Shown: in pieces, positions 1,888 to 46,175 of the stretch
How the letters are laid out: each line of letters opens with the position of its first letter
Numbering within the stretch: the stretch's first letter is position 1
Source of the DNA: Pseudodesulfovibrio tunisiensis
GTDB taxonomy: Bacteria > Desulfobacterota > Desulfovibrionia > Desulfovibrionales > Desulfovibrionaceae
Assembly (NCBI RefSeq): GCF_022809775.1
Contig: NZ_CP094380.1
Span: forward strand, 1,723,001 to 1,787,000
DNA: 64,000 nucleotides
Direction of reading: 5' to 3'
Notes under the pieces: model-generated
What the model was told of the DNA's origin: nothing
Seen by the model: only the letters and a program-made list of their open reading frames with translations
The model's database searches: none
Position numbers and translations under genes: made by a program

Positions 1888-2012
1888 CAGGAAGAGGCCT
1901 CCGGCAGCCTGAACCTTTGCAGAAGGTTCAGGACTCCAAGACTTCCCGGTTGCAAAACCTGAAGGAATCCAGCAGATGCAAGGCCGTGCTGGCGGCGCAA
2001 AGACAAAAGCAA

Positions 2013-2048
2013 GTCCCGGGAGCCTGACGGCTTCCGGGATTTTTTTTG
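2013..2048 (+). terminator. Rho-independent terminator after polA
   Basis: An 11-bp stem (TCCCGGGAGCC / GGCTTCCGGGA) with a TGAC loop is followed by a run of seven to eight T. The arms recur exactly in the hairpin at 8610-8645, at the other end of the six-gene cluster. Confidence 0.9.
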
Positions 2049-2154: not shown

Positions 2155-2183
2155 TTGACACGTGCTACTGTCAAATATATCGT
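2155..2183 (+). promoter_or_regulatory. Sigma-70-like promoter of the nitrogenase-like cluster
   Basis: A perfect -35 TTGACA (2155-2160) is followed after 17 bp by TATCGT; TATATC at 2176-2181 is an alternative -10 with 15-bp spacing. Transcription would start near 2188 and leave a leader of about 140 nt before the first gene. Confidence 0.6.
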
Positions 2184-2328: not shown

Positions 2329-3960
2329 ATGACAAATTCCATGGCCGTTCGAATGGCCGAACCGACCGTCAGGACGGACTGGAGCGGACCAGTGGTTCCC
2401 TGTCCCGGCAATGCGTTCGTCGTGCGCGTCCGACTTGTGGACGGACGGGTCGACGAAGCATGGAGCACGGGCCGCATGGTGCGGAACATGAACGTTCTGC
2501 TGCGCGGGGAACTGGATGATCGGGGTCGCCCGAAATTCGTCAGTCAGCCGCACTGTCTCTGCAATGACGGCCATGCTCTGGCCGCGATCCGCGCCGTGGA
2601 GGACCTTGCGGACGTGGTTCTGCCGCGTAGCGCGATTCTGGTACGCAAACTGGTCCAGTCCCTGCGATGCATGCAGGAGCATCTGCTCCATTTCTATCAA
2701 TTTCATCTCTCCGACTGGGTGAACCGGGAAGCCGCACTGCGGGCCGATCCGGTCAAGGCAACGCGCCTGTCCTCCCTGCCCGGAGCCGATGCCGACCTTT
2801 TCCGAACAGCCCGGGACTGGCTGCACTCCATGGCCACCACGGCCTCGGACGCAAGCCCGGGACATGTTGCACAAGCCCCCCATGCCGGCCCGGACGAACT
2901 GCACCTCATGCTTCAAGGCCACGCCCTGCAGGCCGTTCGGGTCGGCTCTTCACTGCAGACGGCTCTGGAATTGCTCGGCTGCAACTCCAAGGGCTTTCAG
3001 GCCTATCGGCCGGGCGGACTCCCCGACGACATGGACCTGAGTCCGGCACTGCTGACAGCCCTGCACGCCGAACTCGAAAACTGCCGGGAATTCGTCGAAA
3101 CAGTATTTCCCTCGGATCTGGTCCGGCTTGCCAAGGTGCATGCGCCGTGCACCGAACAGGGCCGGAGCAGAGCTCTTCTGACCTGGGACGACGCAAATCA
3201 TGGCAGCCTTCTTCTTCCGGACGCGAACGCAACGGCATGGCACCGTTCCACGCCGGTACCGGAAGCCGTGACCGAGGAGGCGGAACCGAACTGGAATGAT
3301 CGGGACCGTCATTGCTACCGACTTCTCCGACGTCGGGCAGAACCTTCGTTTCATTGGAGTCAGGCACGATATTTCTGGCTGACCGCGCCCAGACACGGAA
3401 AAACAGCCTGCGAGGTTGGCCCGCTGGCCAGAGTCATGAGCAGCTTTGCCGAAGCCGATCCGACCATGGGACAATTCCTGAAACGGATGCTCGACGATTG
3501 CGGACTGTCCCTGTCCGCCATGAATTCCACCATGGGACGGGTTCTGTCGCGGGGCATCGAGTCCTCCTGCCTGATGCGCTCCATTCAGGGCCTGCTGGAC
3601 GAACTGGAACCGGTGCTGGCAAGCGGGCAAGGTCGAAGCACGAAATTCACCCTGCCGAAATCCGGCATCGGTACAGGCCGGGTGGAAGTGCCACGCGGCA
3701 CGCTGGCCCACAGGATTCGCTGGGCCGATGGCAGAATCGTCAGCCACGAATACCTCATTCCGTCCCTGTGGAACTTTTCCCCGCGCGATTCCGCCGGAGA
3801 ACGCGGCCCGCTGGAGCACGCCCTGCTCGGCTGTGCCGTGGCGAATCCCAACCATCCGCTGGAAATCCTGCGCACCCTGCACCAACTGGACCCGTGCAAC
3901 GCCTGTCACGTGGTGATCGAGGACCGGGACACCGGCCGGACCACCCTGACCACGGCCTGA
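2329..3960 (+). CDS. [NiFe]-hydrogenase large-subunit-like protein, atypical metal-site residues
   Basis: This 543-residue protein aligns along its length with [NiFe] hydrogenase large subunits: HALAAIRAVEDL, HLLHFYQFHLSDW, VPRGTLAHR, PSLWNFSPR and LEILRTLHQLDPCNAC all have counterparts in the true subunit at 44457-46175. Differences sit at the active site. The proximal CxxC is one residue shorter (C76-L-C78). The RIEGH glutamate region reads VPCPGNA. The distal motif DPCxxCxxH is DPCNACHVV (C523, C526, H527). A 14-residue tail (IEDRDTGRTTLTTA) matches the length of the peptide normally removed by the maturation protease, but the His at the cleavage point is Val. No small subunit lies nearby. 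It is the first gene of a six-gene cluster. A catalytic subunit with a modified (Ni)Fe centre or a cofactor scaffold are both possible. Confidence 0.85.
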   Translation: MTNSMAVRMAEPTVRTDWSGPVVPCPGNAFVVRVRLVDGRVDEAWSTGRMVRNMNVLLRGELDDRGRPKFVSQPHCLCNDGHALAAIRAVEDLADVVLPRSAILVRKLVQSLRCMQEHLLHFYQFHLSDWVNREAALRADPVKATRLSSLPGADADLFRTARDWLHSMATTASDASPGHVAQAPHAGPDELHLMLQGHALQAVRVGSSLQTALELLGCNSKGFQAYRPGGLPDDMDLSPALLTALHAELENCREFVETVFPSDLVRLAKVHAPCTEQGRSRALLTWDDANHGSLLLPDANATAWHRSTPVPEAVTEEAEPNWNDRDRHCYRLLRRRAEPSFHWSQARYFWLTAPRHGKTACEVGPLARVMSSFAEADPTMGQFLKRMLDDCGLSLSAMNSTMGRVLSRGIESSCLMRSIQGLLDELEPVLASGQGRSTKFTLPKSGIGTGRVEVPRGTLAHRIRWADGRIVSHEYLIPSLWNFSPRDSAGERGPLEHALLGCAVANPNHPLEILRTLHQLDPCNACHVVIEDRDTGRTTLTTA

Positions 3961-3988
3961 TCTTCCCCCTGAACCAAGGACTCAGACC

Positions 3989-4999
3989 ATGAATCGGAAA
4001 AGCATACTTGAGGCTCTTCGGGACGAGGCCCACCAGACGGCTCTGTTCGAACAGGCCGATCAGGTGCGCCGCGATCAGGTGGGCGATGCCGTGCAATTGC
4101 GCGGCGTGGTCCATTTCTCCAACCACTGCCGGTGCAACGACCTGTACTGTGGTCTGCTGAAGGACAACGCCCAGTGCAAACGGTTCCGCATGACAGAGGA
4201 TCAGATCGTGAACACGGCTCTGGCCATTGCGAATGCCGGCCTCAGGACCGTGGTGCTGCAATCCGGCGAGGACCCCCATTTCACCGGAAGCATGCTCTGT
4301 TCCATCATCGAGCGCATTCTGGACAAGGCGGACGTGGCCATCACCCTGAGTCTCGGCAAGCGCTCCCGCAAGGACCTGAAGTCCTTCAGGGACGCCGGGG
4401 CCGAGCGCTATCTCATGAAGCACGAGACCATGAATCCGGAACTCTATTCACGGATGCGTTCCGGCATGCAACTCGATGACCGGCTACGGCTCATCGACAT
4501 GCTGCGCGAACTGGAATTTCAGGTGGGCGTGGGCAACATCGTGGGACTGCCGGGCCAGACTCCGGAGGATATCTGTGAAGACATTCTCTTCTTTCAGGAT
4601 TTCCAGCCGGACATGATCAACATCGGCCCCTTCATTCCCCATGCCCAGACTCCGTTCAGGGACGATCCGGCGGGCGACATGGACCTGCTGCTCCGCGTCT
4701 TTGCCCTGACACGAATCGTCACCGGCAACACGCACATGGCCGCAGCCAACACCGTGGCCACTCTGGACCCGGACAACGGCCAGTACCGGGCACTCGCTCT
4801 GGGCGGAGCCAACGTCATCATGCCCAACTGCAATCCGTTCCTGAAAAGCAGAACGGACAAGATCGAATACGAATTCCAGATCACCACCCGCAAGCGCTAT
4901 GTCTCGGTGGACGAAGCCAGAAGCGTGGTGGATCGGGCCGGACGAACCATAGGCGAGGGCAAGGGACATTCTCTCAAACAGCAAGGAGCACTGCTTTGA
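3989..4999 (+). CDS. HydE-like radical SAM protein with a rearranged cysteine motif
   Basis: This 336-residue protein follows HydE, the [FeFe]-hydrogenase H-cluster maturase: LQSGEDPHFT, RYLMKHETMNPELY, GLPGQTPED, INIGPFIPHAQTPF, TLDPDNGQYRALALGGANVIMPN. The cluster-binding motif, CxxxCxxC in radical SAM enzymes, reads C47-R-C49-N-D51-L-Y-C54, so the middle cysteine has moved and D51 takes its place. No HydF or HydG is in the window. Start: ATG after AAGGA; the stop overlaps the next gene's TTG start by 4 nt. I infer a role in making an organometallic cofactor for the neighbouring proteins. Whether it still binds SAM through a 4Fe-4S cluster is uncertain. Confidence 0.85.
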   Translation: MNRKSILEALRDEAHQTALFEQADQVRRDQVGDAVQLRGVVHFSNHCRCNDLYCGLLKDNAQCKRFRMTEDQIVNTALAIANAGLRTVVLQSGEDPHFTGSMLCSIIERILDKADVAITLSLGKRSRKDLKSFRDAGAERYLMKHETMNPELYSRMRSGMQLDDRLRLIDMLRELEFQVGVGNIVGLPGQTPEDICEDILFFQDFQPDMINIGPFIPHAQTPFRDDPAGDMDLLLRVFALTRIVTGNTHMAAANTVATLDPDNGQYRALALGGANVIMPNCNPFLKSRTDKIEYEFQITTRKRYVSVDEARSVVDRAGRTIGEGKGHSLKQQGALL

Positions 5000-5763
5000 T
5001 AAAGGTAGCGATTTACGGAAAGGGCGGCATCGGCAAATCCACGGTAACCTCCGGAATTTCCGCAGCGCTGGGACTGGGCGGCCACAATGTCATGCAGATC
5101 GGCTGCGACCCCAAGACCGACTCGACCATCAACCTGCTCGGCGGCTTTGCCCCGACTCCCATTCTGCAATACCTGCAGGAAAAGGGACAGCCCGACACGC
5201 TCGACGCCATAGTCAGGAAAGGGTTCGGCAACGTCACCTGCATGGAAGTGGGCGGTCCCACCCCGGGCGTGGGCTGCTTTGGACGAGGCATGCTCACGGC
5301 CTTCGAACTGCTCGACGAAATGGGCGCCTACGACATCTACAAGCCGGACGTGGTGCTCTACGACATCATGGCCGACATTGTCTGCGGCGGCATTGCCGTG
5401 CCCATGCGGGAAGGGTTTGCGGACAAGGTCTGCATCGTGACTTCCGGTGAAAAGATGGCCCTGCTGGCTGCCCGGAACATCATCCTCGCCCTGCGCAATT
5501 TCGCGGATCGAAACTATGCGGAACTGGGAGGCCTGATCCTCAACTGCCGGGACATGGACAACGAGGTGGAGCGCGTGGAAGCGTTTGCCCGCGAGATGGA
5601 CACCTCGATCATCGGCGTGATCCCCCGCGACACGGCCATCCACCGTTTCGAGGAGGACGGCAGGACCATTGTCGAGGGCGACAGAACCCTGCCCACGTCG
5701 CAGCGCTTCCTCGATCTGGCCGCAACCATCGTCAATTTCGCCGAAGAACGGAACGCAGCCTGA
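4996..5763 (+). CDS. NifH-like nitrogenase-superfamily reductase (Fe protein)
   Basis: This 255-residue protein keeps the Fe-protein features: P-loop GKGGIGKST (8-16), the bridging 4Fe-4S cysteines C94 (GVGCFGRG) and C130 (DIMADIVCGG), and switch II around D123. It is shorter than NifH (about 290), lacking part of the C-terminus, as in other NifH-like reductases. It should dimerise, hydrolyse ATP and pass electrons to the NifDK-like complex downstream. It starts with TTG (AAGGAG 7 nt upstream) overlapping the stop of the radical SAM gene, so the two are translationally coupled. The window gives no reason to call it a nitrogen-fixation protein. Confidence 0.93.
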   Translation: MIKVAIYGKGGIGKSTVTSGISAALGLGGHNVMQIGCDPKTDSTINLLGGFAPTPILQYLQEKGQPDTLDAIVRKGFGNVTCMEVGGPTPGVGCFGRGMLTAFELLDEMGAYDIYKPDVVLYDIMADIVCGGIAVPMREGFADKVCIVTSGEKMALLAARNIILALRNFADRNYAELGGLILNCRDMDNEVERVEAFAREMDTSIIGVIPRDTAIHRFEEDGRTIVEGDRTLPTSQRFLDLAATIVNFAEERNAA

Positions 5764-5789
5764 TGCCAGCCAGGAAAGGAGATATGGAC

Positions 5790-7088
5790 ATGAATCCGGA
5801 TCACGCCCGAATCAGGGTGGAACATCTTCGGGAAAAATCCGATTTTCCCTTTGCCCCGCTGGAAGGCGTCGGCCCCAATCTGGCGGGATGGGGCGTCATC
5901 GAAACCAGCCTGCTGCTGCCCGAGTCCGTGGCCATCATGGTCGGCCCATCGGCCTGCCTGCGCCATTCGGCCTTCATGGCCCATGCGCGGGGATTCACCG
6001 AGCGCTTCCATATGCTGTGCGTGTCCGAACTGGACATGACCATGGGCAACCACCTGTCCAAGGTGGAACGGGGCATCGCGGACATTCTTGCCCGGCGGGA
6101 CGAAAAGGTCGCCTTTCTCATCGTGGGATGCCCGGACTACATTCTGGGCACGGATTTCACCGGAGTCATCAACAGGCTGGAAGCCTCCACAGGCAAACGG
6201 ATCATCCTCGGCGCCATGGCTCCCATCACCATCGGGCTCAAGGAATCCCCGTTCACCTCGGCCTACACTTCCTTTTACGAATTCCTCAAGCACGAGCATC
6301 GTCAACTGAACGAAAACCGGCTCAACCTGCTCGGCACGTTCATGCCCCTGTCCGAATCCGGCGAATTCTACCGAATACTGGCCAATGCCGGGCTGGACGA
6401 CGTTGTGCAGATACCGCTGTGCCCGGATCTCGACACCTTTGCCCGCATGGCCCATGGCCGGGCCTCGGTGGTGCTCCACCCGCTGGCCAACGGGCTGAGT
6501 GGCAAGCTGGAGCGAGAAATGGGCATTCCGACCTGTTTTGCACCGACAGCCTACGGGTTTTCCTCCATCAGGGAGCAGTACGAACGAATCGGTCAGGCAG
6601 CGGGCAGAACGCTGGACGTGGCAGTCGTGGAGCAGGAAGCGCGAAAAGCCGCGGCTCCGCTGCTGGCTTCCCTGCGCGGCAGGTCCACGGCAGTCGGATG
6701 CAGCATCAACGGCAGTCCCTTCGAACTGGCGCTGTTCCTCGTGGAAAACGGCGTGAACGTGGACGCCCTGTTCGCTCGCGGCACCATCAAGCCCTACGAA
6801 TGGGACCTGATCGCAAAACTGGGTGCCGCCAAGCCGGACATTCAGGTCTACAACGCATCGCATCCCGCCCTGTGCGGACAGACCGCTCCCTTCGATCATG
6901 TCGAAATCGCCTACGGAGTGGACGCGGGCATGTTCTGCGCCAATGCGGCGAATGTTCCCCTGTCTCGCTATCAGGAACAGAAATACGGCTACGAGGCCAC
7001 CATCTGGATGCTGGAACAGACCCGCGACGCCATGGCACATCCGGTCAGCAACTACGACTGGATCTATGCCCACGACTTTCTCATCTAA
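5790..7088 (+). CDS. NifD-like nitrogenase-superfamily component 1 subunit
   Basis: From the ATG at 5790 (AGGAG 8 nt upstream) it is 432 residues; ATGs at 5763 and 5784 are also in frame but badly spaced from the ribosome-binding site. Three cysteines match the P-cluster ligands of NifD: C56 (VGPSACLRHS), C77 (HMLCVSELD) and C114 (IVGCPDYILGTDF). The FeMo-co ligands are missing: near GIPTC there is no equivalent of the NifD Cys275, and the His442 region reads KYGYEATIW. This matches cofactor-independent relatives such as BchN and CfbD. It probably forms a heterodimer or heterotetramer with the next gene product. The substrate is unknown. Confidence 0.88.
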   Translation: MNPDHARIRVEHLREKSDFPFAPLEGVGPNLAGWGVIETSLLLPESVAIMVGPSACLRHSAFMAHARGFTERFHMLCVSELDMTMGNHLSKVERGIADILARRDEKVAFLIVGCPDYILGTDFTGVINRLEASTGKRIILGAMAPITIGLKESPFTSAYTSFYEFLKHEHRQLNENRLNLLGTFMPLSESGEFYRILANAGLDDVVQIPLCPDLDTFARMAHGRASVVLHPLANGLSGKLEREMGIPTCFAPTAYGFSSIREQYERIGQAAGRTLDVAVVEQEARKAAAPLLASLRGRSTAVGCSINGSPFELALFLVENGVNVDALFARGTIKPYEWDLIAKLGAAKPDIQVYNASHPALCGQTAPFDHVEIAYGVDAGMFCANAANVPLSRYQEQKYGYEATIWMLEQTRDAMAHPVSNYDWIYAHDFLI

Positions 7089-7097
7089 GGATTTTCC

Positions 7098-8300
7098 ATG
7101 AAAGAATACCATCACCTTCTTCCCCTGGCCACGGGCTACTTCGGCGTCAGTTCCGCATTGTACGATTTCGACGGGCTTGTCGTTGTCTACGGCCCGGCTG
7201 GCGGCGCATGGCACATCAACATCGAGGACGAACCGCGCTGGTATCGCGGCCCGGCCACGGTGGTCGGCGCCGGGCTGCTGGAAATGGACGTCATTCTGGG
7301 CAACGACGACAAGTTCATCGACAATATCGTCAGGACGGCCAAGGGACTGGGGCGCAGTTTCGTGGCCCTGTCCGGCACCCCGATTTCCGAGATCATCGGC
7401 ACGGACCTGAAGGGATTCGCCCGGACCATCGAAGCCCGCACCGACATGCCGGTGTTCATGGTGCCCACAGCCGGGTCCGAGCCCTATCCCGAAGGCGCTT
7501 CCAAGGCGTTCCTCGCGCTCGCCGACAAGTTCATGGACCCGAATGCGCCCAAGGTCTCCGGCGGCATCAACGTACTCGGAGCCATTCACCTCACCATGGG
7601 AAAAGGCACCCGATTTGCGCCTCTGCTCGACGTGCTCCGGGAGGACAGGTTCAGGATCGTGGGCATGTTTTCAGCCCCTCTGCCTGATCAGACCGATCCC
7701 CTTGAGGGAGTTCGCAAGGCCCCGGGCGCGGAAATCAATGCCGTGGTCTCCACCAGCGGTCTGGCTCTGGCCGAACACATGCATGCGGATTACGGCATCC
7801 CGTTCGTGGTGGGCATGCCTGTCGGTCTGGCCGGTTGCAACGCCTTTCTGGACATGCTCGACGGCTCGACACCCTCTGTCCACGATGACTGCGAACCAGT
7901 TCCGTACAGACACGCTCTGGTCATTGGCGAACCAGTGTTGAGCCATGGCCTGAAATACTGTCTGAGCCACGATTTCGGCGTGGGCAGGGTGGATGTGATC
8001 TCGGTCACGCCCTCGGAACAGATGTTCAGCCAAAGCCCGGGATGCATCGGCGTACTGGCGGAACGCGGCCATTTCGATCGCGATACCGACGATGAAAAAC
8101 AGATCGGGGAACTGATGAACGATCCGAGCGTCGACCTGATCGTGGCCGATCCCTGCTACCGTCCCCTGCTGAAGGGAGAAAGAAAATTCGTCCCCCTGCC
8201 GCACACGGCCATGAGCGCACGAATTCACTGGGACATGGAATACGAATACGCTGTGGACAAGGGATACGAATATCTGGCCTCGCAACTGTTGGGCGACTAA
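7098..8300 (+). CDS. NifK-like nitrogenase-superfamily component 1 subunit without N-terminal cluster cysteines
   Basis: This 400-residue protein belongs to the oxidoreductase component 1 fold (VYGPAGGAWH, LSGTPISEIIGTDLKGF, DYGIPFVVGMPVG). The positions that carry P-cluster cysteines in NifK are Gly or Thr here (GPAGG, GTP), and the first Cys falls only around residue 249. Any intersubunit cluster would use three Cys from the NifD-like partner and perhaps a non-Cys ligand from this chain, as in DPOR where BchB gives an Asp. The start follows AAGG 9 nt after the previous stop. It lies between the NifD-like gene and hypC. Confidence 0.85.
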   Translation: MKEYHHLLPLATGYFGVSSALYDFDGLVVVYGPAGGAWHINIEDEPRWYRGPATVVGAGLLEMDVILGNDDKFIDNIVRTAKGLGRSFVALSGTPISEIIGTDLKGFARTIEARTDMPVFMVPTAGSEPYPEGASKAFLALADKFMDPNAPKVSGGINVLGAIHLTMGKGTRFAPLLDVLREDRFRIVGMFSAPLPDQTDPLEGVRKAPGAEINAVVSTSGLALAEHMHADYGIPFVVGMPVGLAGCNAFLDMLDGSTPSVHDDCEPVPYRHALVIGEPVLSHGLKYCLSHDFGVGRVDVISVTPSEQMFSQSPGCIGVLAERGHFDRDTDDEKQIGELMNDPSVDLIVADPCYRPLLKGERKFVPLPHTAMSARIHWDMEYEYAVDKGYEYLASQLLGD

Positions 8301-8321
8301 CGCGGAACCAAGGAGAAAACC

Positions 8322-8570
8322 ATGTGTCTTGCCGTTCCCGCCGAAGTGCTTTCCATTGATGGGGACATCGCCGTGTGTCGCGTGGCTCAGGGCCGGACCA
8401 CGGTCAAGGCGTCCCTGATGCTGCTGCCCCGAATGCCGGTCCCGGGCGAATTCGTCATCATCCATGCCGGGTTCGCCCTGCGCGTGGTGGACCGGAAAGC
8501 GGCGGAGGAAACCCTGCGCGTACTTTCCGAGTCCGTGGAATCACCTCAGGGGGCGAGTGCAGAGGGATAA
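8322..8570 (+). CDS. hypC: HypC/HupF-family hydrogenase maturation chaperone, cluster-dedicated copy
   Basis: This 82-residue protein opens with the HypC signature MCLAVPAEV, whose N-terminal Cys is the functional residue, and has the family's FVIIHAGFAL. HypC carries the Fe(CN)2CO unit from HypD to the apo large subunit of [NiFe] hydrogenases. A second paralogue (43605-43862) serves the normal hydrogenase in this window. A separate copy as the last gene of this cluster suggests that the hydrogenase-like protein at 2329 receives such an iron unit. RBS AAGGAG. A terminator follows. Confidence 0.93.
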   Translation: MCLAVPAEVLSIDGDIAVCRVAQGRTTVKASLMLLPRMPVPGEFVIIHAGFALRVVDRKAAEETLRVLSESVESPQGASAEG

Positions 8571-8609: not shown

Positions 8610-8645
8610 AAATCCCGGGAGCCAAACGGCTTCCGGGATTTTCCG
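8610..8645. terminator. Bidirectional terminator after the cluster
   Basis: The stem ATCCCGGGAGCC / GGCTTCCGGGAT with an AAAC loop has TTTT downstream on the plus strand and T-rich sequence on the minus strand. It serves hypC and the convergent gene that ends at 8648. The arms equal those of the terminator at 2013-2048. Confidence 0.8.
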
Positions 8646-43604: not shown

Positions 43605-43862
43605 TTACAGCATGTCGTGCTGATAATTCGCGCCGCCCATCACCTCCACCATGTCGCGGAGGATTTTGAGGGTTTCCTTTGCCTCGGCAGGGTCCATCTT
43701 CTGGATGGCGAATCCCGCGTGAATGATCACGTAGTCGCCAATGACCGCCTCTTCGGGCAGCAGCATGATGGAACACTGGACAGTGGTATTGCCCTCACCC
43801 ACCTTGCAGGTGGCAACGCCGTCCTCAATTTCGAGAATCTCAGCAGGTATCGCGAGGCACAT
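43605..43862 (-). CDS. hypC: HypC/HupF-family hydrogenase maturation chaperone
   Basis: This 85-residue protein starts MCLAIPAEILEIEDG with the functional N-terminal Cys and has DYVIIHAGFAI. It is the last gene of the hydrogenase operon and overlaps the protease gene by 23 nt. It delivers the Fe(CN)2CO unit to the large subunit. It is a clear paralogue of the HypC at 8322-8570. Confidence 0.94.
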   Translation of the reverse strand: MCLAIPAEILEIEDGVATCKVGEGNTTVQCSIMLLPEEAVIGDYVIIHAGFAIQKMDPAEAKETLKILRDMVEVMGGANYQHDML

Positions 43863-44385
43863 AGACTTTCTCCGTGGAAGGGTTGTTGCTTGTCCGGGGC
43901 GCGAATTCGCCACCCGCGGACCTGATTTCCTCAAGCACCGTTTCCTTGACCTTGCCGAGCACGGCTTCCAGCTCGGGAGACAGGGCCGTGGACATGGTGG
44001 TGAAATCCTTGGGTTCCACGCCGTAAAGAATCACGTCCTCGGGAACGGTCCCCACCAGATTACACTGGGCAAGCGTATCGAGCAAGTCGGTCTGATGCAT
44101 GGAATTCTGGAACGAACAGGCCTTTTCGAGGTCCTGTCCCAGCAGCCGGAACACTTCACCCGGGCTGCCGTCGTTCATGACGATATCCACGAGAATCAGG
44201 TAGTCGGATTCCATGATCGGCCCCATGAGCCGAAGCCCCAGAGTGCCTCCATCCATGACCTCCACATTGGAGGAAAATACATAGTCCCTGTCCAGTTCCT
44301 CGGCCACTCGAACGCCGAAGCCTTCGTCGGAAAACAGGACATTGCCCACGCCGAGTACGAGAATGCGCTTTTCTGTGTCTGCCAT
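43840..44385 (-). CDS. hynC: [NiFe] hydrogenase maturation protease
   Basis: This 181-residue HyaD/HybD-type endopeptidase has LGVGNVLFSDEGFGVRVAEEL (nickel-sensing Glu), VMDGGTLGLRLMGPIMESDYLILVDI (conserved Asp) and the later His region. It removes the C-terminal peptide after DPCIACGVH once nickel is in place. It follows the large-subunit gene after a strong intercistronic hairpin. Confidence 0.92.
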   Translation of the reverse strand: MADTEKRILVLGVGNVLFSDEGFGVRVAEELDRDYVFSSNVEVMDGGTLGLRLMGPIMESDYLILVDIVMNDGSPGEVFRLLGQDLEKACSFQNSMHQTDLLDTLAQCNLVGTVPEDVILYGVEPKDFTTMSTALSPELEAVLGKVKETVLEEIRSAGGEFAPRTSNNPSTEKVYVPRDTC

Positions 44386-44398
44386 AGGTCCTGCATAA

Positions 44399-44437
44399 AA
44401 GGCGGGAACCCGGAGGTCAACTCCGGATTCCCGCCGG
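44399..44437 (-). terminator. Intercistronic hairpin between large subunit and protease genes
   Basis: On the minus strand GGCGGGAATCCGGAG pairs with CTCCGGGTTCCCGCC, followed by TTTTAT. It could act as a partial terminator or protect the 3' end of the structural-gene message, so that hynBA is made in excess over hynC-hypC. Confidence 0.65.
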
Positions 44438-44456
44438 TTGGTCGGTTTATCGGGAA

Positions 44457-46175
44457 CTACAGAACCCGGAATTTGGCCACATTGCCGGTCTTGTTGTCGA
44501 TGACGTGCACGCCGCAGGCGATGCAGGGGTCATACGAGTGGACCGTGCGCAGGATTTCCACCGGGCGCTCGGGATCGGCAATCGGGGTGTTGTCCATGAG
44601 GGCCTCTTCCACGGGGCTGGGCAGGTCCTTGTCGCAGCGAGGGCCAAGGTTCCACGTGGTGGGCACCACGAGCTGGAAGTTGTCGATCTTCCCGCCCTTG
44701 ATGTTGATCCAGTGGCTCAGGGCACCGCGAGGAGCGTTGACGTAACCAACGCCCTGCGCCTCGGAAGGCATGTCCCAATCCTTGCAGATGTCCAGATCGC
44801 CCTTGGCGATGTTTTCCTTGAGATCGTTGACCCAGTCAGCGGTCTTCAAGGCAGTGACCAGACATTCGATGCCGCGGCCGGCAGTACGGCCGAGGGTGGA
44901 GAACAGGGCCTCAGGGCCCACGTCCAGCTGGGCAAGGACAAAGTCCACGTACTTCTTGAACTCGGGATGACCCAGACCATAGTTCACCAGGCAGGTGGCC
45001 AGCGGGCCGACCTCGGTGGAACGGCCGTCGTAGCGCGGGGCCTTCATCCAGGAGTAGCGTTCCTTGTCGTCGAGGCTGGTGTATTCCGGCTCGGTAACGC
45101 CCTCGTAGGGGTGTTTCGGCTCGCCGGGCTTGTACCAGGAGTGCTTGACGTGTTCGTCGATCTTCGCGGGATCGAGATCCATGACGTTGCCGAGGTCGCG
45201 ATCAAAGATCACGCCGGGCTTGACGTACCGGGATTTCAGGTCGGCTTCGCCGCCCTGCGCCGGGTATTCGCCGAAGGTCATGAAGTTCGTGGTGCCGCCG
45301 ATGGAGGCCCAGTTCTTGTAGCCCTTGGCAACCGCGATCAGATCCGGGATGTAGCAATCCAGGATGAAGTCGAGGATGTCGTCGTACAGGCCGACGAAGT
45401 CGTTGATGTATTTGTCGGTGAGGCCTTCGTAGCACGTCACGCCGCCCATCACGGTGAACTGGGTGTGCGGGTTCTTTGCGCCGAAAATGGCCATGGCGCG
45501 GGCGGCCTTGACCTGAAGATGCAGGGCATTCAGGTAGTGGTTGGTCGCCAGCAGGTTGACCTCGGGCGGCAGCACGTAGGACGGATGACCGCCGAGGAAG
45601 TAGGCGTTGGTGAAGATGCCCAGACGGCCGGACTTCACGATGCCGATGACGGTGTCCTTGGTCTTCTGAAGGTCGGCCTTGGAGGACACGATCTTCGGAT
45701 TGGGGCGCACGGTTCTGGCAACGGCCTGAGCGATTTCCGCGGTCTTGTCGACGTCGGCCTCGGCACAGGCGGCAACATCCACGAAATCCAGAGCGTGCAG
45801 CTGATAGAAGTGCACGATGTGGTCGTGCATGAACTGCGCGGCCATGACCAGATTGCGGATGATGGTGGCATTATGGGGCAGCACCTTGTCAACGCCCACG
45901 GCGTTGTCCACGCAGCGAACCGAAGCCAGAGCATGCACGTAGGTGCACACGCCGCAGGAACGCTGGGTGAAGTGCTGGGCATCACGGGGATCGCGGCCCT
46001 TCAGGATGATTTCCAGGCCACGGAACAGCTGAGCGCTGCTGCGAACGTCGACGATCTTGCCGTCTTCGACAACGGCCTCGATGCGAAGGTGACCCTCGAT
46101 GCGGGTAACCGGATCGACGATGACTTCATGTTTGCCCTTGGCCATGGGGGCGGCTTTCGGGGAGCAACCGGACAT
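44457..46175 (-). CDS. hynA: Periplasmic [NiFe] hydrogenase large subunit
   Basis: The 572-residue subunit binds the Ni-Fe site through RSCGVC and DPCIACGVH. It also has the RIEGH glutamate, the PRGALSHW arginine and PTTWNLGPR. The C-terminal peptide VIDNKTGNVAKFRVL is removed in maturation. It carries no signal peptide and travels with the Tat-exported small subunit. RBS AAGGAGG. It is a useful internal reference for the aberrant homologue at 2329-3960. Confidence 0.97.
   Translation of the reverse strand: MSGCSPKAAPMAKGKHEVIVDPVTRIEGHLRIEAVVEDGKIVDVRSSAQLFRGLEIILKGRDPRDAQHFTQRSCGVCTYVHALASVRCVDNAVGVDKVLPHNATIIRNLVMAAQFMHDHIVHFYQLHALDFVDVAACAEADVDKTAEIAQAVARTVRPNPKIVSSKADLQKTKDTVIGIVKSGRLGIFTNAYFLGGHPSYVLPPEVNLLATNHYLNALHLQVKAARAMAIFGAKNPHTQFTVMGGVTCYEGLTDKYINDFVGLYDDILDFILDCYIPDLIAVAKGYKNWASIGGTTNFMTFGEYPAQGGEADLKSRYVKPGVIFDRDLGNVMDLDPAKIDEHVKHSWYKPGEPKHPYEGVTEPEYTSLDDKERYSWMKAPRYDGRSTEVGPLATCLVNYGLGHPEFKKYVDFVLAQLDVGPEALFSTLGRTAGRGIECLVTALKTADWVNDLKENIAKGDLDICKDWDMPSEAQGVGYVNAPRGALSHWINIKGGKIDNFQLVVPTTWNLGPRCDKDLPSPVEEALMDNTPIADPERPVEILRTVHSYDPCIACGVHVIDNKTGNVAKFRVL

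What the first reader, a model, noticed from the sequence alone, without database searches (positions are those of the whole stretch)
2329..8570. Six-gene cluster joining nitrogenase-like, [NiFe]-hydrogenase-like, HydE-like and HypC proteins
One promoter drives a hydrogenase-large-subunit-like gene (no small subunit), a HydE-like radical SAM gene, NifH-, NifD- and NifK-like genes and a dedicated hypC, with gaps of -4 to 28 nt. Known nitrogenase-like systems (BchLNB, BchXYZ, CfbCD, Mar) do not, as far as I know, include a hydrogenase large subunit, HydE or HypC. Inference: the NifHDK-like reductase acts with, or helps build, a (Ni)Fe(CN)(CO)-type site in the hydrogenase-like protein. A catalytic complex or a cofactor factory are both open.
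Basis: partly seen in the sequence, partly recalled or inferred. Interest (0 to 1): 0.95.

Follow-up and report, generated by a model that had tools for sequence, protein, structure and literature searches.

The report
HydG-free builder of iron-hydrogenase cofactor
Six neighbouring genes in this relative of sulfate-reducing bacteria combine parts of three metal-enzyme toolkits (nitrogenase, nickel-iron hydrogenase and iron-only hydrogenase), and they likely replace HydG, the usual source of carbon monoxide and cyanide, in building the active site of an iron-only hydrogenase, because the complete genome carries genes for that hydrogenase but none that is recognisable as HydG.

Summary
Six ORFs at 2329-8570 encode a [NiFe]-hydrogenase large-subunit-like protein (LSU*), a HydE-like protein (HydE*), NifH/NifD/NifK-like proteins and HypC.

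Genome context changes the reading. In related clusters HydE*-NifHDK* lies beside HydF (10 of 23 type-I genomes), often with ammonia-lyase-like, TM1266, Hyp and [FeFe]-hydrogenase genes. A second arrangement (10 of 288 family genomes) runs HydE-HydF-NifHDK-NifHDK, flanked by HydAB and HypF/D/E where the stretch reaches. The window's complete genome has HydAB, HydE and HydF; its best HydG hit is ThiH. In a 119-genome sample all 10 type-I genomes have HydF; 7 of 10 lack HydG, against 7 of 44 other HydF+ genomes.

HydE* has Asp for the middle radical-SAM cysteine (79 of 80) and a new cysteine (83 of 83). LSU* mostly lacks one nickel-ligand cysteine (66 of 69) and always the cleavage His. NifDK* lacks most P-cluster cysteines.

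Best reading: a HydG-independent [FeFe]-hydrogenase maturation route. Inferred: Hyp-made Fe(CN)2CO is the iron source and NifHDK* the ATP-driven reductant. A 2012 paper noted in one sentence NifHEN-like genes near hydrogenase maturation genes in Firmicutes. My searches found no description of HydG replacement. Nothing biochemical was tested.

The parts
2155..2183 (+). sigma-70-like promoter match upstream of the cluster (not proven)
   Evidence: TTGACA-17-TATCGT, 10 of 12; 1 found against 1.6 expected in shuffles
2329..3960 (+). LSU*: [NiFe]-hydrogenase large-subunit-like protein, 543 aa; keeps the second L1 Cys and DPCxxC, has His at the first L1 Cys position and no C-terminal cleavage His
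   Evidence: PF00374 6e-82; alignments; AF2 model pLDDT 81 matches [NiFe] large subunits, TM about 0.77
3989..4999 (+). HydE*: HydE-family protein, 336 aa, radical-SAM motif CX3DX2C instead of CX3CX2C, extra Cys in MPNCNPF
   Evidence: TIGR03956 267.4 bits over cut-off; motif counts
4996..5763 (+). NifH*: nitrogenase-reductase-like ATPase, 255 aa, both [4Fe-4S] cysteines (C94, C130) kept
   Evidence: PF00142 1.7e-77; 10 of 10 aligned type-I sequences keep both Cys
5763..7088 (+). NifD*: nitrogenase component-1-like protein, 441 aa as opened (432 aa in relatives, start near 5790); C65, C123 and C392 conserved
   Evidence: PF00148 1.6e-23; A1; 78 proteins aligned; AF2 model pLDDT 84 matches nitrogenase, Mar, NifEN and DPOR folds
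7098..8300 (+). NifK*: nitrogenase component-1-like partner, 400 aa, no invariant Cys; GPAGGAWHINIEDEPRW in the region of the nitrogenase GPxGC motif (equivalence recalled)
   Evidence: PF00148 4.9e-21; 15 type-I sequences aligned
8322..8570 (+). HypC paralogue, 82 aa, belonging to the cluster
   Evidence: PF01455 2.5e-19, TIGR00074 over cut-off; follows NifK* in 13 of 19 Desulfovibrionaceae clusters

Best explanation
The cluster is likely a HydG-free maturation route for [FeFe]-hydrogenase: Hyp-type proteins would supply an Fe(CN)(CO) unit, and the NifHDK-like complex would reduce it with ATP-driven electrons into the diiron precursor that HydF loads into HydA. Shown: the gene content, its conservation, its linkage in many relatives to HydF and to HydAB and Hyp genes, the absence of HydG over cut-off from this complete genome, and the ligand changes. 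Inferred, step by step: (1) HypCDEF makes Fe(CN)2CO, as for [NiFe] enzymes; (2) in Desulfovibrionaceae the cluster's own HypC hands it to LSU*, which keeps both bridging Cys but in most members has lost a Ni-ligand Cys, and so acts as a nickel-free holding site; (3) NifH* passes electrons to one [4Fe-4S] cluster in NifD*K*, which lowers the iron to the Fe(I) level and adjusts the CO/CN ligands, work done by HydG and HydE in the known pathway; (4) HydE*, with an altered SAM-cluster motif, pairs two iron units; (5) HydF, with ammonia-lyase-derived nitrogen, finishes the [2Fe] unit and delivers it to HydA. Steps 2-4 are the least certain.
For: (a) Linkage, type I: HydE*-NifHDK* lies within the fetched stretch beside HydF in 10 of 23 distinct genomes, often with AspA-like, TM1266, HydB, HydA and HypD/E. 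(b) Linkage, type II: 10 of 288 family genomes carry two NifD-like genes, and in 10 of 10 the order is HydE-HydF-NifHDK-NifHDK, with HydA-HydB-TM1266 before it and HypF-HypD-HypE after it where the stretch extends; HypC was identified in one. (c) Co-occurrence in 119 genomes: HydF in 10 of 10 NifD*+ against 44 of 109 NifD*- (Fisher p 2e-4); among HydF+ genomes HydG over cut-off is missing in 7 of 10 NifD*+ against 7 of 44 NifD*- (p 0.0015). (d) 0 of 10 genomes reached by the genome scan have HydG over cut-off (three of them are also in the 119); over 17 distinct type-I genomes tested, 14 lack it. In this genome the best HydG hit is ThiH, 470.3 bits. (e) Signs of interchange: in G024 the best HydG match is an N-terminal remnant (101.5 bits) in its hyd operon, while its HydE*-NifHDK* frames are open; G088, which has HydG, has a frameshifted NifH*. 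(f) The seven type-I genomes tested have HydE* as their only HydE over cut-off. (g) HydA keeps the TSCCP, MPCxAKK and CPGGC motifs in the ten type-I genomes aligned, and in G462. Known chemistry: HydG makes the Fe(II)(CN)(CO)2 synthon and HydE is held to reduce it to an Fe(I)Fe(I) dimer (PMC12752695, passages); HypCD passes Fe(CN)2CO to apo-large subunit (PMC11565642, abstract).
Against: Three of 17 tested type-I genomes also have HydG. Seven HydF+ genomes lack both HydG and NifD*, so HydG loss has other causes or was missed in drafts. G462 (type II) has a HydG-like hit of 325.6 bits, just over the 312.15 cut-off, on another contig; I read it as a paralogue because similar hits (298, 321 bits) occur in G102 and G087, which lack HydF and HydA; nine of the ten type-II genomes were not searched for HydG. 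In this genome the cluster is about 1.57 Mb from hydF, and a second HydE with the usual motif lies beside hydF. All 18 genomes searched have some [NiFe]-type large subunit (Ech-like in G462) and HypB, so the Hyp genes need not serve the [FeFe] enzyme alone. Six of 19 Desulfovibrionaceae clusters show no HypC. HypD, HypE and HypF do not match within the window and were not searched for in the rest of this genome. Three of 69 LSU* keep a Cys at the first L1 place. Fe(CN)2CO has the wrong CN:CO ratio for the H-cluster, so a ligand change must be assumed. Related genomes are not independent, so the p-values are rough. No expression or biochemistry was tested.
Confidence: 0.72

Rival explanations
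1. The cluster makes or is a separate enzyme: LSU* plus NifHDK* form a catalytic complex with its own substrate, and the hyd genes are only neighbours.
For: In this genome the cluster is far from hydF. LSU* keeps the hydrogenase fold and mostly three of four ligand Cys. Three genomes have HydG as well as the cluster.
Against: HydF is present in 10 of 10 NifD*+ genomes of the sample. The two Desulfofervidaceae clusters have no LSU* but do have HydF, HydA and HydB. Type II clusters place NifHDK after HydF in 10 of 10. 66 of 69 LSU* lack the first L1 Cys.
Confidence: 0.12
2. A narrower form of the best explanation (most of its odds lie inside the 0.72): NifHDK* only supplies one ligand, for example CO by CO2 reduction, while cyanide and iron come by another route.
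For: Nitrogenases and their Fe proteins can reduce CO2 to CO (recalled, no call). HydE plus HydF alone can activate HydA to about 1%, doubled by free CO or CN (PMC9431212, passages).
Against: HypC sits in most clusters, and HypD/E/F flank it in several genomes, which suggests that the iron-cyanide unit is delivered too. It does not explain the altered HydE* motif.
Confidence: 0.2
3. The cluster assists [NiFe]- or Ech-hydrogenase maturation and is linked to hyd genes because all are hydrogenase genes.
For: All 18 genomes searched have a [NiFe]-type large subunit and HypB; the window itself holds an ordinary [NiFe] large subunit with its own HypC-like ORF at 43.6-46.1 kb.
Against: Only 10 of 119 family genomes have NifD*, all with HydF and HydA. 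The HydE-family partner has no known role in [NiFe] maturation (established knowledge). HydG is missing more often in these genomes.
Confidence: 0.06

Closest known systems
HydE/HydF/HydG [FeFe]-hydrogenase maturation (PMC12752695, passages)
   Same: HydF, a HydE-family protein, HydAB, TM1266 and, in relatives, ammonia-lyase-like neighbours
   Different: No HydG over cut-off in this genome; NifHDK-like proteins and Hyp proteins linked instead; HydE* motif CX3DX2C
NifHEN-like genes near hydrogenase maturation genes in Coprococcus catus and other Firmicutes (PMC3464626, passages)
   Same: Nitrogenase-like genes in the neighbourhood of hydrogenase maturation genes; two linked NifHEN copies there, as in type II here; a role in metallocluster assembly suggested in one sentence
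   Different: The passages seen mention no HydG loss, HypC, LSU* or HydE* change; not shown to be the same family
[NiFe]-hydrogenase large subunit and HypCD Fe(CN)2CO transfer (PMC11565642, abstract)
   Same: Fold, DPCxxC, HypC partner
   Different: First L1 Cys absent in 66 of 69 and cleavage His absent in 68 of 68; no small subunit among the six ORFs
DPOR (BchLNB), CfbCD and methylthio-alkane reductase
   Same: NifH-type ATPase plus a component-1-like partner; fold matches to DPOR and Mar
   Different: Passes none of the NCBIfam cut-offs; linked in relatives to hydrogenase maturation genes
NifEN scaffold with NifH
   Same: A component-1-like complex likely used to build a cofactor; fold match
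   Different: NifK* has no invariant Cys; no NifB among the six ORFs

Membership tests
HydEFG maturation system | HydG present | tested here: not met
   Own complete genome: best HydG hit 216 bits against cut-off 312.15, and that protein is ThiH, 470.3 bits; 14 of 17 type-I genomes without HydG over cut-off
HydEFG maturation system | HydF present | tested here: met
   Own genome 537.6 bits; 10 of 10 NifD*+ genomes of the sample
HydEFG maturation system | HydE with CX3CX2C radical-SAM motif | tested here: not met
   For the cluster's HydE*: Asp at the middle position in 79 of 80. A second HydE with CX3CX2C lies beside hydF in this genome
[NiFe]-hydrogenase large subunit | Two CxxC motifs giving four Ni/Fe ligand Cys | tested here: not met
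   Window protein has His at the first L1 place; not Cys in 66 of 69 LSU*; second L1 Cys in 69 of 69; both DPCxxC Cys in 66 of 68
[NiFe]-hydrogenase large subunit | C-terminal cleavage site DPCxxCxxH/R | tested here: inconclusive
   No His at that place in 68 of 68 LSU*; Arg in 16 of 68; the peptide after it is kept
[NiFe]-hydrogenase | Small subunit partner | tested here: inconclusive
   None among the six ORFs; the rest of the genome was not searched
Nitrogenase (Nif/Vnf/Anf) | Six P-cluster Cys | tested here: not met
   NifD* conserves two in the recalled P-cluster places (C65 in 73 of 73, C123 in 75 of 75); NifK* has no invariant Cys in 15
Nitrogenase (Nif/Vnf/Anf) | FeMoco ligands | tested here: inconclusive
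   C313 (71 of 78) and C392 (77 of 77) are conserved, but their equivalence to known ligands was not settled
DPOR, CfbCD, Mar | Match to the family model over cut-off | tested here: not met
   BchN 31-34 bits, BchL 175 and CfbC 270, all below cut-off; no Mar model appeared among the listed matches, so Mar was not tested this way
HypC | Family model over cut-off and N-terminal MC | tested here: met
   TIGR00074 58.1 against 48; starts MCLAVP
HydG-free [FeFe] maturation | Activity of HydAB depends on the cluster | not testable with these tools
   Needs genetics or biochemistry

The most novel reading that the evidence does not exclude
A third biological route to iron-carbonyl-cyanide cofactors: Hyp proteins make Fe(CN)2CO, a nickel-free hydrogenase subunit stores it, a nitrogenase-type ATPase reduces it to Fe(I) in place of radical-SAM chemistry, and HydE*, a radical-SAM fold with an Asp in its cluster motif, couples two units into the [FeFe]-hydrogenase diiron site.
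Probability: 0.35. Interest if true: 0.97.

Novelty: categorically new. Interest (0 to 1): 0.9.

Why it matters
HydG is the established source of the CO and CN ligands of [FeFe]-hydrogenases. A pathway that does without it would link three great metallocofactor machineries (Nif, Hyp, Hyd), give nitrogenase-like proteins of unknown role a testable function, and offer a route to make [FeFe]-hydrogenase without tyrosine-cleaving radical chemistry. HydE* would test whether a radical-SAM fold can work with an Asp in its cluster motif or has changed its chemistry. It would also explain how HydG-less bacteria can keep an apparently intact [FeFe]-hydrogenase.

Tried and rejected
Rejected: 'LSU* is the catalytic centre', because it is absent from both Desulfofervidaceae clusters. 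Rejected: 'Hyp genes serve only [FeFe] because there is no [NiFe] enzyme', because all 18 genomes tested have a PF00374 protein, and the G462 one is Ech-like by my reading of its CxxC and DPCxxC motifs. Rejected: 'HypB is missing', because it is present in 18 of 18. Rejected: a broken NifH* in G058; the stop is the natural end of the protein. Not separable: whether the seven NifD*- HydF+ genomes without HydG are draft gaps. The 15 HydA+ genomes without HydF showed that HydA alone does not prove a maturation route, so I leaned on HydF. Thermodesulfobium has related NifD* and HydE* proteins and Lebetimonas a NifD*, but no genome handle was available to read their neighbourhood. Literature: ten searches, in an open-licence library only.
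Full report
1. What is there. Six ORFs at 2329-8570 (+) encode LSU* (543 aa), HydE* (336), NifH* (255), NifD* (441; 432 in relatives), NifK* (400) and HypC (82). The window is bases 1,723,001-1,787,000 of a 3.61-Mb, one-contig genome, G000, given as 100% complete. Close protein relatives are named Pseudodesulfovibrio, Maridesulfovibrio and other Desulfovibrionaceae.

2. Neighbourhood in relatives (type I). A genome scan with NifD* gave ten loci. In Ca. Desulfofervidaceae L007 the order is HydA, HydB, TM1266, HypE, HypC, AspA-like, HydF, HydE*, NifH*, NifD*, NifK*, HypF, HypD. The flanking genes pass NCBIfam cut-offs for FeFe_hydrog_A, TM1266, HypE, HypC, aspartate ammonia-lyase (PRK12273), HydF, HydE, HypF and HypD (HydB there is named from its place and a weak match). 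Desulfovibrionaceae loci such as L001 (G657), L139 (G638) and L141 (G646) read LSU*-HydE*-NifHDK*-HypC-HypD-HypE, then HydF, AspA, TM1266, HydB, HydA on the other strand; L139 has a second HydE between HydF and AspA. Of 23 distinct type-I genomes (G503, G504 and G507 taken as G657, G653 and G602 by identical contigs), HydF lies within the fetched stretch in 10: eight Desulfovibrionaceae and two Desulfofervidaceae. Several of the other stretches stop at contig ends. LSU* is in 19 of 19 Desulfovibrionaceae clusters, in 0 of 2 Desulfofervidaceae, and unknown in two loci that begin at HydE* (L009, L010).

3. A second arrangement (type II). An alignment reaching both forms was searched over the 288 family genomes held: 29 match at E 1e-25, 19 type I and 10 with two NifD-like genes each, all of one genus. 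In 10 of 10 of the latter the order is HydE-HydF-NifHDK-NifHDK. HydA-HydB-TM1266 precede and HypF-HypD-HypE follow where the stretch extends; HypC was identified in L051 only. One NifD of G462 is 25-30% identical to six NifD* proteins, and type-II HydE keeps CX3CX2C in 10 of 10. Two quite different nitrogenase-like sets are thus tied to the same hyd-hyp partners.

4. HydG. In 119 family genomes: NifD* in 10, HydF in 54, HydG over cut-off in 43, FeFe_hydrog_A over cut-off in 66. HydF is in 10 of 10 NifD*+ and 44 of 109 NifD*- genomes; among HydF+ genomes HydG is missing in 7 of 10 and 7 of 44. In this genome the best HydG hit (216 bits) is ThiH (470.3 bits to its own model). Its hyd operon (L035) holds HydA, HydB, TM1266, HydE and HydF, but no HydG. 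The ten scan genomes have 0 of 10 HydG over cut-off (L003, L004 and L006 are G020, G024 and G061, already in the 119). Over 17 distinct genomes, 14 lack HydG; G058, G065 and G088 have it. G024 keeps only model positions 7-138 of HydG between TM1266 and AspA. G088, with HydG, has NifH* split across two frames. Both could be assembly errors, but they fit interchange of the two routes.

5. Ligand changes. HydE*: one search found 4,469 proteins and listed the best 120, which I examined. Of the 83 of HydE* type, 80 cover the motif; 79 have Asp and one Cys at the middle position, and 83 of 83 have Cys in MPNCNPF. Of the other 37, 36 have the middle Cys and one has the new Cys; the one with Asp is a fragment that looks like HydE*. 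In loci, 16 of 16 HydE* with the region have Asp and 8 of 8 other HydE have Cys. Asp ligation of an [Fe-S] cluster has a precedent in DPOR (stated in PMC3464626). LSU*: of 70 listed proteins, 69 cover L1; the first Cys position is His, Ala, Asn, Ser, Gln or Thr in 66 and Cys in 3; the second Cys is kept in 69; both DPCxxC Cys in 66 of 68; no cleavage His in 68 of 68, Arg in 16. By established structures (recalled) the lost Cys is a terminal Ni ligand and the two bridging Cys remain. NifH* keeps both cluster Cys (10 of 10). NifD* conserves C65 and C123, in places that I recall as P-cluster places. NifK* has no invariant Cys in 15. This fits a one-cluster reductase of the DPOR/CfbCD kind (inference).

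6. How it most likely works. In the known pathway HydG makes Fe(II)(CN)(CO)2-cysteine from tyrosine, HydE is held to reduce and dimerise it to an Fe(I)Fe(I) unit, and on HydF the bridging amine is built (PMC12752695, passages) with nitrogen that ammonia-lyases can supply (PMC11736057, passages). HypCD carries Fe(CN)2CO and hands it to an apo-large subunit (PMC11565642, abstract). Replacing HydG with Hyp proteins gives the iron-cyanide-carbonyl unit, but with one CN too many and too little CO, and not yet reduced. A nitrogenase-type ATPase is the kind of machine that could drive the missing reduction and ligand change. LSU* would be the receiver of the HypC-bound unit in Desulfovibrionaceae. 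These steps are inferred.

7. Prior knowledge. [quoted passage not shown] catus and Dorea longicatena have two closely linked NifHEN-like copies, which resembles type II. Searches for HydG-independent or HydG-lacking maturation, and for HydF with NifH, found no description of this system (read as listings apart from the passages cited; open-licence library only). PMC9431212 (passages) reports about 1% HydA activation by HydE plus HydF alone, which is a baseline to beat.

8. Verdict. A HydG-independent [FeFe]-hydrogenase maturation system is well supported as the setting (0.72). The division of labour among Hyp, LSU*, NifHDK* and HydE* is much less certain.

Noticed in passing
L090-L095, L097-L099 (genomes G002, G045, G013, G054, G044, G060, G090, G098, G027): HydA-HydB-TM1266 with intact H-cluster motifs, no HydE, HydF or HydG match beside it and no HydF in the genome. 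A conserved ORF next to TM1266 is a TonB-dependent receptor in the two tested by Pfam. In all, 15 of 66 HydA+ genomes of the sample lack HydF. How these mature is unexplained.
   Followed up: partly
window 43620-46064 (-): An ordinary [NiFe]-hydrogenase large subunit (668.5 bits to PF00374) with a second HypC-like ORF, about 35 kb from the cluster.
   Followed up: partly
G102, G087, G040, G462 (L086-L088 and G462:C69): A HydG-like paralogue (about 298-326 bits) occurs in one genus, also in two genomes without HydF or HydA; function unknown.
   Followed up: partly
P0233: One HydE*-group protein keeps the middle radical-SAM Cys and also has the new MPNC Cys: a possible intermediate.
   Followed up: no
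P0014, P0049, P0066: Three LSU* proteins have Cys at the first L1 place (CC[LI]C), beside the usual shifted Cys.
   Followed up: no
L137 4036-7183 and L140 11713-11808: HydF of one type-II genome matches in two pieces about 1.9 kb apart, and HypD of G640 matches over only about 32 residues; both may be interrupted or truncated.
   Followed up: no
window 2011-2042 and about 8610-8640: Nearly the same hairpin (CCCGGGAGCC..GGCTTCCGGGA) precedes and follows the cluster, as terminator-like stems (the second was seen in the sequence only).
   Followed up: no
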